DNA from: Salsuginibacillus kocurii DSM 18087 | GTDB taxonomy: Bacteria; Bacillota; Bacilli; Bacillales; Marinococcaceae | Length of the DNA: 64,000 nucleotides | Direction of reading: 5' to 3' | NCBI RefSeq assembly: GCF_000377705.1 | Contig: NZ_KB898623.1 | Location: 186,001 to 250,000, forward strand | Shown: in pieces, positions 42,747 through 46,769 of the stretch | Numbering within the stretch: position 1 is the stretch's first letter | Layout of the letters: each line of letters starts with the position of its first letter | Notes under the pieces: generated by a model | Database searches by the model: none | What the model saw: only the letters and a program-made list of their open reading frames with translations | What the model was told of the DNA's origin: nothing | Position numbers and translations under genes: made by a program

Positions 42747-43787
42747 CTATGGATAAATCGGAACGATATCTAGACCGCTCTTTTCGTCAAAGCCGTGCAT
42801 CACATTCATATTCTGTATCGCCTGGCCAGAAGCGCCTTTTACTAAATTGTCAATCACACTTACGATTGTCAGGCGCCCGGTGCGTTCATCGATTGTTAAA
42901 CTTATATCACAGTAATTGCTTCCGTACGTTTCTTTTGTACTTGGAAAACAATCTGAGGTTCGAACTCGGATAAACGGTGCATCTTTATACACATCGGTTA
43001 ATACCTGCAAGTGATCAGCTGCTGATGCACCCGTTTCAGTTGGTTCCGCATAAATAGTTGCCATAATTCCTCTAGGTATAGGCAAGAGATGCGGAGTAAA
43101 TGTTAGTGTTTCTCGGGCTCCGCGTACAGTTGAAAGTTCTTGTTCCATTTCTGGCAGGTGTTTATGCTGATTTACTTTGTACGTCTTAAAATTTCCGGAA
43201 AGTTCACTAAAATGAGTCATTTCCGAAGGAGAACGACCTGCTCCTGTTGTCCCTGTTTTCGCGTCAATGATAATACTGTCGGCTTTAATCATATCCTGCT
43301 CTACTAGTGGTAGCAGCGGAAGCAGTGAAGCCGTTGGATAACAACCTGGATTTGCAATAACTTGAGCTGTTGCAATGGCCTCATTGTTCCATTCTGTCAA
43401 TCCGTAAACAGCTCGCTCAAGCAGGGCCGGTCCTGCTGTATTCTGTCCATACCACTCTCGGTACGTACTCTCATCATTAATGCGCAAGTCTCCGGACAAA
43501 TCAATCACTTTAGCGTGCGAAGAAAGAATTTTCTCTGTCCATTCCGCAGAAACCCCTGCTGGCGTTGATAAAAAGACGACATCATATTGATTGGAAACCA
43601 GACTGTCATCAAGCTGTTCTAATGTTTTTTCCTGAATCGAATTCATATGCGGATAATTTTTATTCAAAGCTTCCCCTGCTTGGGAAGAAGAAAATAGTGT
43701 AATGTCTGAAACATGCGGATGTTGATGCAAAAGTCGAAGCAGTTCAATTCCACCATAACCTGTAGCGCCTACCACGGCAATATTCAT
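42747..43787 (-). CDS. argC: N-acetyl-gamma-glutamyl-phosphate reductase
   Basis: ArgC reduces N-acetylglutamyl phosphate to the semialdehyde. The 346-residue product has the dinucleotide-binding VVGATGYGGIELLRLL and the catalytic Cys149 in ANPGCYPTA, with the later HKHLPEMEQEL histidine. First gene of the operon, preceded by a strong promoter that contains an ARG box, so arginine should repress it through ArgR/AhrC. Confidence 0.96.
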   Translation of the reverse strand: MNIAVVGATGYGGIELLRLLHQHPHVSDITLFSSSQAGEALNKNYPHMNSIQEKTLEQLDDSLVSNQYDVVFLSTPAGVSAEWTEKILSSHAKVIDLSGDLRINDESTYREWYGQNTAGPALLERAVYGLTEWNNEAIATAQVIANPGCYPTASLLPLLPLVEQDMIKADSIIIDAKTGTTGAGRSPSEMTHFSELSGNFKTYKVNQHKHLPEMEQELSTVRGARETLTFTPHLLPIPRGIMATIYAEPTETGASAADHLQVLTDVYKDAPFIRVRTSDCFPSTKETYGSNYCDISLTIDERTGRLTIVSVIDNLVKGASGQAIQNMNVMHGFDEKSGLDIVPIYP

Positions 43788-43834
43788 AAAGTTGCACCCC
43801 GTTCTATCTTTATACGAATTAACTAGTAACTCCT

Positions 43835-43863
43835 ATTATAGAAATGAATAAAAATTAATGCAA
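43835..43863 (-). promoter_or_regulatory. argC promoter with ARG box (ArgR/AhrC operator)
   Basis: On the minus strand TTGCAT (43863-43858), 17-nt spacer, perfect TATAAT (43840-43835). The spacer is filled by an ARG-box-like element: on the plus strand ATGAATAAAAATTAATGC (43844-43861), close to the CATGAATAAAAATTCAAG operator of B. subtilis argC (from memory). A weaker second element with GTGAATTACTG lies about 45 nt upstream (near 43895-43905). Confidence 0.85.
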
Positions 43864-43983
43864 CTGTATTTTTATATTTTCTTTACATTTTTATTGTGAA
43901 TTACTGCGCCCATTCGTAAGAACATGGATGAAACCCCTATTTCTCTGGATTTATTAGCTTTTATACAACTAGGTAAAAGCCAT

Positions 43984-44023
43984 AAAAAAACCTTAGCTTT
44001 CCCCAAAAGAGAGAAGCTAAGGT
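43984..44023 (-). terminator. Terminator of the ctaG-SCO-selenoprotein cluster
   Basis: ACCTTAGCTT (43990-43999) / AAGCTAAGGT (44014-44023) is a perfect 10-bp stem with TTTTTTT following on the minus strand, 9 nt after the stop at 44033. Confidence 0.93.
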
Positions 44024-44032
44024 ATTCATTCC

Positions 44033-44545
44033 TTATTCATTTTCATTCAATGCGTCTTGAATGCGTGCTGCTGTGTCTTCCATTTGCTCTGCAAAGTGAT
44101 TATTTTCATGGCTCGTCAGCACTTCGCCATTTTCATCTAATACGCTAAAGCCACGCAACGCTTGTTCCTCGTCCCCCATGTCCGTATGTGACATGATCGT
44201 TAAGTCAGGGTCAGACAAAATTGTATAATCTATACCTGCTGCTTCTTTGAATTCTTCATGGTTAGCTGGGGGATCAGCACTGATTGCATAATAATCGAGG
44301 TCCATTTCATCAAATCGTTCCTTCTCTGCTTGCAGCTGCACGAGCTGCTGTTGGCAAAGACCTCAGTTTACTCCGGTAAAATGAAATAAGACAGTGGGCC
44401 TCTCGTTGTTAGCAAGTGATACTTCTTCATGTTCTTCATCCAAAGCTGTAAGCTCTTCTTCTTCGCCGTCACCACAGGCTGCAGCTAGAACGGCAAAGAT
44501 AAGTACAGTAAGCAGCATAAGGATTGATTTTTTATAACCATGCAT
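44033..44545 (-). CDS. Probable selenocysteine-containing redoxin lipoprotein (peroxiredoxin/thioredoxin-like, UxxC)
   Basis: Two abutting frames join into one 170-residue protein if TGA at 44365-44363 is read as selenocysteine. The N-part has a lipoprotein signal (VLIFAVLAAAC), an acidic linker and the strand TVLFHFTGVN. Then comes U61-G-L-C64, QQQLVQLQAEKERF and YYAISADPP, matching the AhpC/TSA pattern vvLvF..xWCPxCrxqLxqL...aiSaD, so U61 sits exactly at the first redox cysteine. No other in-frame stop or frameshift exists, and a good stop and terminator follow. A SECIS-like hairpin is at the right distance. ATG 44545 follows GGAGGAG and AAGGGGGAG. Third gene after ctaG and SCO; probably an extracytoplasmic thiol or peroxide reductase. 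An automatic annotator would split or call it a pseudogene. Confidence 0.85.
44332..44348 (-). promoter_or_regulatory. Candidate bacterial SECIS hairpin
   Basis: On the minus strand GCAGCT-CGTGC-AGCTGC forms a perfect 6-bp stem with a 5-nt loop; the loop starts 20 nt after the TGA, and its second base is G. A lower extension TTTGC/GCAAG (5-9 and 30-34 nt after TGA) competes for the last two stem bases. From memory, bacterial SECIS elements have the apical loop about 16-37 nt after UGA and a G in the first two loop positions, so this qualifies. Confidence 0.75.
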
Positions 44546-44628
44546 CTCCTCCACTCCCCCTTTCTTAGGATCAAACTGATTATACTGTAGCGGTTGAGTC
44601 AATAAGCGTCAATAATTATGCTTGATTG

Positions 44629-45249
44629 TCACTCTTCATTCACCAGTGCTTCAATCTCTTCTACATATGCATCCGTATCACTTTCCAGCCCGTCATATGA
44701 ACGAACCACTTGACCATTCGGATTGACAAGAAAAAAGCTGGTGGCATGCATAATGTCATCATCTTCTGGGACAGCTTGTACGACACTGTTAAAAGACTCC
44801 TCTGCAAATGTTTTAATCTCATCATCTGTATATCCCGTTAAAAAGTGCCAAGTATTAAGATTTGCATTATAAGATTCCCCGTAATCTTTTAGTCGTTCAG
44901 GCGTATCAAACTCAGGGTCGACGGTAAAAGATACCATTTCTACAGCTGTATCCTCTTCTTCCAATTCCGCCTGCAAGCTTGACATATTCGGGCTCATTAA
45001 ATTACAAACACTTGGACAGCGGGTAAATACCATATTTGCCAACCAGTATGACCCTTCCAAGTCTTCCAATCCCATCTCGTCCCCTTGTTCATCTGTAAAC
45101 GAAAAATCTTCTACATATAAGTCGGCCTCGGTAAGGTCCTGTCCTTCTCCGTCTGCATCTCCACTACTTTCAGATTCATACAGCCAGCCACAGCCTGAAA
45201 GAAACAAAAACATGCAACCAACTATTATGAGGCGTCCCTGAATTTGCAT
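44629..45249 (-). CDS. SCO1/SenC family lipoprotein
   Basis: SCO proteins deliver or reduce the copper centre (CuA) of cytochrome c oxidase. The 206-residue product has a lipobox (FLSGC20), an acidic linker and the thioredoxin-like domain with the copper motif C78-P-S-V-C82 (VFTRCPSVCNLM) and the ligand histidine in DIMHATSFFLV. AAAGGTGAAGG precedes the ATG. It lies between ctaG and the selenocysteine redoxin on one strand, 27 and 83 nt from them, suggesting a joint role in oxidase assembly or copper-thiol chemistry. Confidence 0.94.
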   Translation of the reverse strand: MQIQGRLIIVGCMFLFLSGCGWLYESESSGDADGEGQDLTEADLYVEDFSFTDEQGDEMGLEDLEGSYWLANMVFTRCPSVCNLMSPNMSSLQAELEEEDTAVEMVSFTVDPEFDTPERLKDYGESYNANLNTWHFLTGYTDDEIKTFAEESFNSVVQAVPEDDDIMHATSFFLVNPNGQVVRSYDGLESDTDAYVEEIEALVNEE

Positions 45250-45276
45250 TGTCCTTCACCTTTCTTTGTCCATCCT

Positions 45277-46197
45277 TCACTCTGTCACTTTAGCCCCTTT
45301 AGGTATATCGCTGATTGAGACGTCTCCTTCCTGAAACTTCTCTTTCTTCAACCATTGTTTAAAGATATAGCCTATCGTTATGCCATACGTAACTTCCTGC
45401 ATCACTTTCATAAGCACTCCTGCTAATTGCTGATCCAGTAACGGTGTTAAAAACACGTTATCCGTCCAATTAAACATTTCTAGTGGGATAGTATCTCCGG
45501 CGGGCAGGCAGTATGCCATTACAGTCGCCCATGTACTGGCGTCTGTATAGGTATTATACATAGGGTCATTTGCAAAGATTATCAATGCACAGGCAGGAGT
45601 AATCAATAAGCCATTGGCAAAGACATAACCAATTCTCCGCAAATCAGTAAGCCCGCCTTCTGTCGGCAGTGGAGAAATCATGTGCCACCACATCAACATA
45701 GCACTCATTAATAAAAGAACTTCATAGAAACTGTGCATGCCCACATTGAGCATCAGCGCGTCAAAAACCCCTGGTATATGATAAAAAGAAAAAAGCGAGT
45801 TAAATGCCAGCAGGCCGATCAAAGGATTCATAATTACACGGTTCGTTAACGGCGAAATCTCTTTCCACTTGTTCATTACGATATATAAAAGCCATTTCGG
45901 CATAGCCAGAATAAACAGAGGTGCAGCAACAAAATAAGCCGCCACCATTTGTGCCATATGTATACTGAGCACCATATGACCGGCAGCATACAACGGGCCG
46001 CCCCAACCGATATATAAAGCAGCCAGCCCTAATATAAAATAGGCATCTTGTTTTTTAGACTGCGGTTCACTTTCCACAAATCGGTGCCGCCATTTTCTCG
46101 TCAGCAAGTAATATATGCCAAAAACGACAAGAAGTACAGCGATTAGCTCTGGCGTCCAAAGACCACGAAAAGATAAGGTGGAAAAATATTCTCCCAT
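45277..46197 (-). CDS. ctaG: Cytochrome c oxidase assembly factor CtaG (caa3-type)
   Basis: CtaG is a polytopic membrane protein needed for the caa3 oxidase in bacilli. The 306-residue product has seven or more helices with conserved histidines (YAAGHMVLSIHMAQM, MWWHMISPLP) and the ILAMPKWLLYIVM and NPLIGLLAFNSLFSFYHIP segments typical of the family. ATG 46197 has AAAGGAG at 9 nt; the frame continues 26 codons upstream without a site. First gene of the cluster with SCO and the selenocysteine redoxin. Confidence 0.92.
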   Translation of the reverse strand: MGEYFSTLSFRGLWTPELIAVLLVVFGIYYLLTRKWRHRFVESEPQSKKQDAYFILGLAALYIGWGGPLYAAGHMVLSIHMAQMVAAYFVAAPLFILAMPKWLLYIVMNKWKEISPLTNRVIMNPLIGLLAFNSLFSFYHIPGVFDALMLNVGMHSFYEVLLLMSAMLMWWHMISPLPTEGGLTDLRRIGYVFANGLLITPACALIIFANDPMYNTYTDASTWATVMAYCLPAGDTIPLEMFNWTDNVFLTPLLDQQLAGVLMKVMQEVTYGITIGYIFKQWLKKEKFQEGDVSISDIPKGAKVTE

Positions 46198-46769
46198 TTC
46201 TATACTCCTTTCAAACTGCCGTAAAAAACGACTACTTTCTATTTTCAACTCATGGTTTGGTTCGTCACCTTTCATTTAACCTATAGATCGGTTAAACGAC
46301 CTTGAAAAGGGAACACTCTTCAAATTTAGAAATGAAAACAACAGTGGCACATAAGTCTAGTCAAGCTGCGAATGTTTACTCTATCTTGGTCTGTCACGTG
46401 TTTATACGAATGCTGTGTTTTGAAGGGTTGTTGCGTTTCCAACTGGAGCAGTAACATTTAGCTTCTTTCAGGTGTTGAAATGAAACCTTCCATAACGTTT
46501 GTGAAAACACTTATAAGAAAAGTGTACCCATTGCATCAATACTATAGCATATTTTCTTCACTACATGGATGGACAAGATGTTACAATTTCACCTTCAAAT
46601 AAATTGCATATCCCTTTCGTTTTTCTATTATTCTTATACCAATACCGAGAGCTTTGGACCCATTTTCTTATCATCCTAAAATTTCACTAAAAGTACTTTC
46701 CTATTCTTCTTAATGTCTTCATATATTGAATAAACTACGGCTCCCCTTAAAATACGGTAGTTTAAAAAG
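46198..46769. other. AT-rich spacer between ctaG and the GNAT gene
   Basis: No gene is supported. It holds a hairpin ACACTT-ATAAGAA-AAGTGT near 46509-46527 (perhaps in the ctaG promoter region) and an inverted pair AAACTAC (46732-46738) / GTAGTTT (46757-46763) just before the GNAT promoter. Confidence 0.4.

What the first reader, a model, noticed from the sequence alone, without database searches (positions are those of the whole stretch)
44033..44545. Undescribed-looking selenocysteine redoxin lipoprotein with a UGLC active site
Two adjoining frames, 44545-44366 and 44362-44033, become one complete 170-residue lipoprotein redoxin when the single TGA at 44365-44363 is read through. The TGA falls exactly where the first redox cysteine of AhpC/TSA-type proteins lies, giving U61-x-x-C64. 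Downstream sequence (QLVQLQAEKERF, YYAISADPP) continues the fold with no other break. Ordinary annotation would split it or call it a pseudogene. Selenoproteins are rare in aerobic Bacillaceae.
Basis: partly seen in the sequence, partly recalled or inferred. Interest (0 to 1): 0.93.

Follow-up and report, generated by a model that had tools for sequence, protein, structure and literature searches.

The report
Hidden selenium redox lipoprotein of bacilli
A gene that looks broken by a stop codon is most likely an intact gene for a membrane-anchored redox protein carrying the rare amino acid selenocysteine, and the same hidden gene occurs in many bacilli that have the selenium machinery.

Summary
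The two frames join into a 170-residue lipoprotein redoxin if the TGA at 44365-44363 is read through. The genome holds tRNA-Sec, SelA, SelB and a SelD that itself needs a TGA read as Sec. TGA stands at the same codon in 38 loci (36 of 150 related genomes, the window's included) and in 72 of 72 Bacillales-type loci of a second, overlapping collection; no Cys orthologue was found. A hairpin 20 nt after the TGA fits the bacterial SECIS model; 93 of 100 genes form all six pairs against 5.5% expected by codon choice. Order-wide, 56 of 138 SelA+ and 0 of 161 SelA- genomes have it; in five SelA- relatives sco1 meets argC without it. Corrections: Sec aligns with the first Cys of CxxC, not with the peroxidatic Cys (that is C64), and UxxC peroxiredoxin-like selenoproteins are a known kind. 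New are a Sec-only lipoprotein subfamily of bacilli, below cut-off for every NCBIfam model where scores were printed, and in one clade linkage to ctaG-sco1, pointing by inference to thiol redox in copper-oxidase assembly.

The parts
44033..44545 (-). Sec-redoxin gene (170 aa, lipoprotein, U61-G-L-C64)
44363..44365 (-). TGA read as selenocysteine (U61)
   Evidence: same codon TGA in 38 loci of 36 genomes, the window's own included, and in 72 of 72 loci L091-L162, nine of them in genomes already counted
44332..44348 (-). bacterial SECIS-type apical hairpin: 6-bp stem, 5-nt loop CGTGC with G at loop position 2, 20 nt after the TGA
   Evidence: model rules from PMC13188914
44474..44545 (-). signal peptide up to lipobox Cys C24 (invariant in 37 of 37 rows of A1)
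44354..44356 (-). C64, partner of U61; aligns with the peroxidatic Cys of peroxiredoxins
44153..44155 (-). R131, invariant; aligns with R116 of AhpE
44546..44560 (-). purine-rich ribosome-binding site
   Evidence: sequence
43984..44022 (-). terminator-like hairpin with T7 tail after the gene (not reported by the scan)
   Evidence: fold -20.9 kcal/mol for a 61-nt stretch
44629..45249 (-). upstream neighbour SCO1/SenC (PF02630)
45277..46275 (-). ctaG, caa3 cytochrome oxidase assembly factor (PF09678, TIGR02737)

Best explanation
This is an intact selenoprotein gene. SelB with Sec-tRNA (made with SelA and SelD) decodes the UGA with the help of a hairpin 20 nt downstream, so that a 170-residue lipoprotein is made, exported and anchored on the outer face of the membrane. 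There U61 and C64 form a UxxC redox pair on a peroxiredoxin-type thioredoxin fold: the selenolate attacks an oxidised substrate (a disulfide or a peroxide) and C64 resolves it as a selenenylsulfide, which an extracytoplasmic thiol system (perhaps a CcdA-type protein) re-reduces. In the window's clade the likely client is the copper-handling ctaG-sco1 pathway of cytochrome oxidase assembly. Strongly supported by comparative evidence: the gene, the Sec decoding, the SECIS, the machinery, and by prediction the fold. Inferred: the redox chemistry (about 0.8), the reductant (about 0.4), the link to copper-oxidase assembly (about 0.35). The confidence given is for the selenoprotein itself, not for these later steps.
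For: Machinery: tRNA-Sec 66.6 bits, over the cut-off of 47, also called by ARAGORN; SelA, SelB and a Sec-type SelD in one cluster. Conservation: TGA at the same codon in 38 loci of 36 genomes among 150, own locus included, one of the 38 decayed, and in 72 of 72 loci L091-L162 of a scan whose pattern lay behind the TGA (92 confirmed, best 80 kept). SECIS: 99.1% of cells paired, covariation score 0.210 against 0.085 in shuffles, 0 of 500 as high; 93 of 100 genes form all 6 pairs against 5.45% expected by synonymous choice; Leu68 is CTN, codon 70 ends in AG and Leu71 is YTG in 100 of 100. Co-occurrence: 36 of 74 SelA+ and 0 of 76 SelA- genomes; 56 of 138 and 0 of 161 order-wide, an overlapping set. 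Same family: 14 of 14 SelA+ (one decayed) and 0 of 15 SelA-, with ctaG-sco1-argC and no redoxin in five SelA- relatives. Fold: mean pLDDT 89.8; PrxQ Z 18.4, AhpE Z 18.1. Neighbours: ctaG-sco1 directly upstream in 27 of 108 loci, and one gene away in two more.
Against: No protein-level evidence exists. Two homologues are decayed (G010, G166) although their genomes keep SelA, so the gene is dispensable and is not the only thing that keeps Sec. More than half of SelA+ genomes showed no match: 38 of 74 (one of these, G098, has a divergent copy by the profile) and 82 of 138, one of these the decayed G166. The ctaG-sco1 linkage is confined to one clade, and argC is as conserved on the other side, so it could be plain synteny. 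Of the ten SelA- family members with a sco1 match, five have other genes behind the best-matching sco1, so they show no empty site; five more gave no sco1 match. Fisher p-values ignore shared ancestry. Only SelA, not SelB or SelD, was counted in relatives. The fold was predicted with Cys in place of Sec.
Confidence: 0.93

Rival explanations
1. A pseudogene or a sequencing error: the TGA is a true nonsense mutation.
For: Read by the ordinary code it is split in two; decayed copies exist in G010 and G166.
Against: 36 other full-length homologues, 22-55% identical to it, keep the TGA at the same codon and are otherwise open; 72 of 72 further loci, nine of them in the same genomes, have TGA there; synonymous sites behind the TGA are constrained for a hairpin.
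Confidence: 0.01
2. The UGA is read through by another amino acid (Trp or Cys by suppression or reassignment), not Sec.
For: Only that no protein has been seen.
Against: Sec machinery in the genome, a hairpin that meets the bSECIS model, no occurrence outside SelA+ genomes in two searches; in CPVC-type Prx-like relatives the residue in that place is Cys.
Confidence: 0.02
3. It is a selenoprotein, but a true peroxidase (PrxQ/AhpE-like) that guards the cell surface against peroxide, with no special tie to copper oxidases. This rival concerns function only and is compatible with the selenoprotein reading.
For: The best solved matches are peroxiredoxins such as PrxQ and AhpE; the Arg that aligns with the Prx Arg is invariant; most loci show no copper-linked neighbour.
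Against: The Prx TxxC motif is changed: Sec stands where its Thr aligns, and the pair sits as UxxC, the spacing of ResA/TlpA-type reductases (the ResA register is recalled).
Confidence: 0.35

Closest known systems
Prx-like thiol:disulfide oxidoreductase selenoproteins (PF00578, UxxC/UxxU; review PMC13188914, Table 1)
   Same: PF00578 fold, UxxC motif
   Different: In the passages seen (PMC1794560, PMC2398784) they come mostly from anaerobes and marine metagenomes and have many Cys homologues; the present group is lipoprotein-type, from bacilli, and Sec-only in the sample. No sequence of the known type was available for direct comparison, so an overlap is not excluded; PMC1794560 counts three selenoproteins in Bacillales without naming them in the text seen.
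NCBIfam NF040769 SelL-related redox protein and NF053656 TUGYCR motif thioredoxin fold (seleno)protein
   Same: Redoxins named for selenium-type motifs; TUG-x-C resembles the TTYTUGLC form
   Different: Window's protein: 30.4 bits against 120 and 12.8 against 100. At E 0.001 or better 34 and 6 of 37 members match them; the scores printed, for the window's protein and, are far below cut-off
PrxQ/BCP and AhpE peroxiredoxins
   Same: Fold (PrxQ Z 18.4, 2.3 A, 139 residues), conserved Arg
   Different: Peroxidatic Cys aligns with C64; their Thr is replaced by Sec
ResA/StoA/TlpA thiol-disulfide oxidoreductases
   Same: CxxC-type spacing of the redox pair; membrane-anchored and extracytoplasmic (recalled for these families)
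   Different: Sec instead of the first Cys; weak sequence match (ResA 23.8 bits against a cut-off of 170)

Membership tests
Bacterial selenoprotein | In-frame TGA conserved at a redox position | tested here: met
Bacterial selenoprotein | bSECIS hairpin: loop 3-9 nt, stem 4-16 bp, G in the first two loop positions, 16-37 nt from the UGA | tested here: met
   6-bp stem, 5-nt loop with G at position 2, 20 nt; rules. The MFE rule (-7.5 kcal/mol or lower) is met by the 38 single 54-nt folds (-7.7 or lower), though several of these folds differ from the common hairpin
Bacterial selenoprotein | SelA, SelB, SelD and tRNA-Sec in the genome | tested here: met
Bacterial selenoprotein | Selenium found in the protein | not testable with these tools
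   needs 75Se or mass spectrometry
Peroxiredoxin (PxxxTxxC/U) | Thr three residues before the peroxidatic Cys/Sec | tested here: not met
   T57 is four residues before U61; C64 aligns with the peroxidatic Cys and U61 with the Thr
Peroxiredoxin (PxxxTxxC/U) | Thioredoxin-like Prx fold and active-site Arg | tested here: met
   R131 invariant in 37 of 37
Prx-like thiol:disulfide oxidoreductase selenoproteins (UxxC) | PF00578 with UxxC | tested here: met
   PF00578 in 37 of 37 members; UxxC in 37 of 37 and in L091-L162
NF040769 SelL-related redox protein | Score over the curated cut-off of 120 | tested here: not met
   30.4 bits
NF053656 TUGYCR (seleno)protein | Score over the curated cut-off of 100 | tested here: not met
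   12.8 bits
ResA (NF002854) | Score over the curated cut-off of 170 | tested here: not met
   23.8 bits

The most novel reading that the evidence does not exclude
A selenocysteine-obligate lipoprotein family, not found here in any Cys form, is a main reason why many bacilli keep the Sec machinery; in the alkaliphile clade it is the reductant of copper thiols in caa3 oxidase assembly, so that oxygen respiration there would lean on selenium.
Probability: 0.25. Interest if true: 0.85.

Novelty: new variant of a known kind. Interest (0 to 1): 0.66.

Why it matters
It is a widespread selenoprotein subfamily that standard translation splits in two and that scores below the cut-off of every NCBIfam model (release 20.0) in the five members whose scores were printed. 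It gives a concrete candidate for why bacilli without a visible Sec formate dehydrogenase keep Sec decoding. The 2026 review (PMC13188914, section 10) says that aerobic bacteria rarely retain selenoproteins, while a 2016 survey (PMC5029168, passage) found aerobic and anaerobic Sec users about equally common; the present family bears on that dispute, though no oxygen requirement was checked here. The joint absence of gene and SelA, without any Cys replacement seen, makes it a test case for what Sec does that Cys cannot.

Tried and rejected
Rejected: pseudogene, sequencing error, non-Sec readthrough (see rivals). Considered and dropped: that the ctaG-sco1 linkage holds for the whole family; it holds in one clade only. 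Considered and dropped: that Sec is kept in family f1 solely for this protein; G010 is decayed but SelA+. In the list, formate dehydrogenase matches with a TGA stand in 13 genomes, none of family f1, and G001 and G010 have no match at 1e-100; but the list was cut, so absence of Sec-FdhA is not proven. Only the own genome was looked at whole (3 matches at E 0.001, none with a TGA).

Led nowhere: a single-protein scan of genome contigs (no relative); plasmids by tblastn (no match); promoter and terminator scan of 43700-46700 (no more sites than in shuffles). The scan used the peptide CQ[QK]QLV[QE]L, which is itself coded by the SECIS stem, so it favours Sec forms. The tests for Cys forms that do not have this bias are. 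The matches without TGA that I translated, five and five, are by eye ordinary Prx-like, AhpC and TlpA-type proteins; G166 is a decayed fragment. The other weak matches without TGA (35.4 bits or less) were not translated, the lists were cut, and only 12 first-look candidates per genome were scored. One search is a lower bound: the profile finds a further divergent TGA copy in G098, one of the 150 (SelA+). L166 was misplaced by my script (codon CCT) and left unresolved. L170 (Gemmataceae, distant) has TGC. L124 is titled Pseudomonas but carries a gene like those of the Bacillaceae. The tree (76 rows) puts the 62 Sec forms of bacilli together, but with support 85/70 and a midpoint root only; no Cys row falls among them.

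Literature: ten searches in an open-licence PMC library without preprints; among the titles and abstract starts listed I saw none on this protein, but several lists were cut. PMC13188914: abstract, sections 5 and 10, parts 1-2 of 3 of section 7, and passages. PMC5029168, PMC1794560, PMC9312934, PMC2398784, PMC5322559: passages only. PMC1794560 counts 3 selenoproteins of 3 families in Bacillales, and PMC5029168 Prx-like thiol:disulfide selenoproteins in 28 organisms; which ones, I could not see, so earlier sight of single members is not excluded.

Full report
Observation. On the minus strand, 44545-44033 reads as one 170-codon frame with a single TGA (44365-44363) giving U61 in FTGVNUGLC. The protein matches AhpC-TSA (5e-19) and Redoxin (4e-13) across the TGA; a lipobox ends in C24.

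Machinery. The window's genome (3.83 Mb, 99.88% complete by the tool's figure) has tRNA-Sec (66.6 bits, cut-off 47; ARAGORN agrees) and, within about 10 kb of it on the same contig, SelA, SelB and SelD. The SelD frame itself needs a TGA read as Sec (AGUGCK), so the genome holds at least two likely selenoprotein genes. Its three formate-dehydrogenase-like matches hold no TGA.

Homologues. Among 150 related genomes, the window's own included, 36 carry this protein with a TGA at the same codon, in 38 loci (one, in G010, is decayed behind the TGA). The 37 full-length ones align with invariant C24, T57, U61, C64, Q67, L68, L71, S89, R131, G132. In a second collection, a scan with the part behind the Sec codon confirmed 92 relatives and kept 80; the codon is TGA in 78, TGC in one distant Planctomycete locus and misplaced by my script in one. 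The 72 loci L091-L162 are from bacilli by title (Alkalihalophilus pseudofirmus OF4, Sinobaca, Halalkalibacter, Cytobacillus, Neobacillus, Planococcus, Fictibacillus and others; one is titled Pseudomonas) and all 72 have TGA; nine lie on contigs that match genomes of the first set by length. A profile search of 299 genomes of the order gave 62 with a match at 1e-12: 56 with TGA, one decayed (G166), five with ordinary Cys redoxins. No Cys orthologue was found, within the limits told under Tried and rejected.

SECIS. 20 nt behind the TGA lies a 6-bp stem with a 5-nt loop whose second base is G in all 37 rows of A2. In 36 distinct rows 99.1% of cells pair; the covariation score 0.210 exceeds all 500 shuffles (mean 0.085), and slid versions pair in 47% of cells at most; the number of pairs with a change on both sides (2) is not unusual (181 of 500 shuffles reach it). 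Because the stem is coding, I tested synonymous choice: in 100 genes (82 distinct 36-mers; 37 from A1 and 63 named, nine named loci left out as the same genomes), 93 form all six pairs against 5.45% expected from the codon usage of the same genes; Leu68 is CTN in 100 of 100 although TTA and TTG make up 48% of Leu codons elsewhere in these genes; codon 70 ends in AG and Leu71 is CTG or TTG in 100 of 100; the covarying pair is G-C 49, A-U 45, G-U 6, broken 0. This meets the published bSECIS model.

Co-occurrence. Full-length SelA is in 74 of the 150 genomes; the 36 redoxin genomes (decayed G010 included) all lie within them (Fisher 2.8e-14). In the order-wide set, which overlaps the first, 138 of 299 have SelA and all 56 redoxin genomes are among them (8e-23). 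These p-values ignore descent. Within the window's own family, 14 of 14 SelA+ genomes have the gene (one decayed) and 0 of 15 SelA- genomes. In SelA- relatives G005, G008, G016, G021 and G025, ctaG-sco1 runs straight into argC with 124-456 bp between; the best tblastn hits of the family there fall in sco1 or argC, none in the gap. In five others (G004, G011, G017, G022, G026) other genes follow the best-matching sco1, and five (G012, G018, G023, G027, G028) gave no sco1 match. Against a simple story, G010 and G166 keep SelA with a decayed gene, and more than half of SelA+ genomes showed no match.

Fold and active site. The AlphaFold2 model (Cys for Sec, 48 sequences) has mean pLDDT 89.8 and pTM 0.80. 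Among the best solved matches are PrxQ (Z 18.4, 2.3 A over 139 residues) and AhpE (Z 18.1). In the profile alignment to AhpE, C64 falls on the peroxidatic Cys, U61 on the motif's Thr, and R131 on R116. So U61-x-x-C64 sits as the CPVC of Prx-like proteins does (by eye), on a peroxiredoxin scaffold; the like register in ResA is recalled.

Surroundings. The gene lies 83 bp behind sco1, itself behind ctaG; a terminator-like hairpin follows it. In 108 loci (seven of them the distant ones), 27 have sco1 directly upstream and ctaG before it; two more have sco1 one gene away with a lipoprotein between (YtkA-like, tested for one). By my reading of the neighbour table these 29 belong to the FHFT-motif clade of 30 loci, the thirtieth being cut by its contig end. 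In six Fictibacillus-type loci a cupredoxin-like lipoprotein follows (tested for one). The other loci show no neighbour common to many. The copper link is therefore suggestive only. The own genome has one CcdA/DsbD-type protein.

Known or new. The 2026 review lists 119 families or subfamilies, among them Prx-like UxxC selenoproteins; the GOS paper lists Prx-like 1 to 3 with UxxC. No NCBIfam model reaches its cut-off for the window's protein or for the four other members whose scores were printed; one search gives only counts for the rest. I therefore call it a new variant: a Sec-only lipoprotein subfamily of bacilli within a known kind.

Noticed in passing
L009:2063-3115 (G000:C2): SelD of the same genome itself needs a TGA read as Sec (AGUGCK); a standard frame call starts it too late.
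   Followed up: yes
L009:3620-7147 (G000:C2): A phosphonate-type ABC transporter (PhnD-like binding protein, permease, ATPase) and a LysR-type regulator (by eye) lie between selD and selB; candidate selenium uptake genes. PMC5322559 (passages) reports LysR-like genes next to sel genes.
   Followed up: no
L163, L164, L165, L167, L168, L169, L170: Distant redoxins with [UC]P[YF]CQKQLV[QE]L and much the same hairpin in Gammaproteobacteria, Planctomycete and Verrucomicrobia records; L170 has TGC at the site yet keeps the stem, a possible recent Sec/Cys switch.
   Followed up: partly
L045, L047, L048 (G096, G129, G056): A divergent second subgroup (FTG-x-x-U-x-x-C-x-x-QLV[EQ]L), also with TGA; G056, G140 and G263 carry two TGA-bearing copies each.
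   Followed up: partly
L046 (G010) and L192 (G166): Decayed copies of the redoxin in genomes that still have full-length SelA.
   Followed up: partly
L187 (G004): In a SelA-negative relative, a CcdA-like gene and a TlpA/ResA-like gene (by eye) precede another sco1, a possible Cys counterpart of the arrangement.
   Followed up: no
G009:C1 and G013:C1: G009 has two full-length SelA genes; G013 has a second SelA broken into pieces.
   Followed up: no
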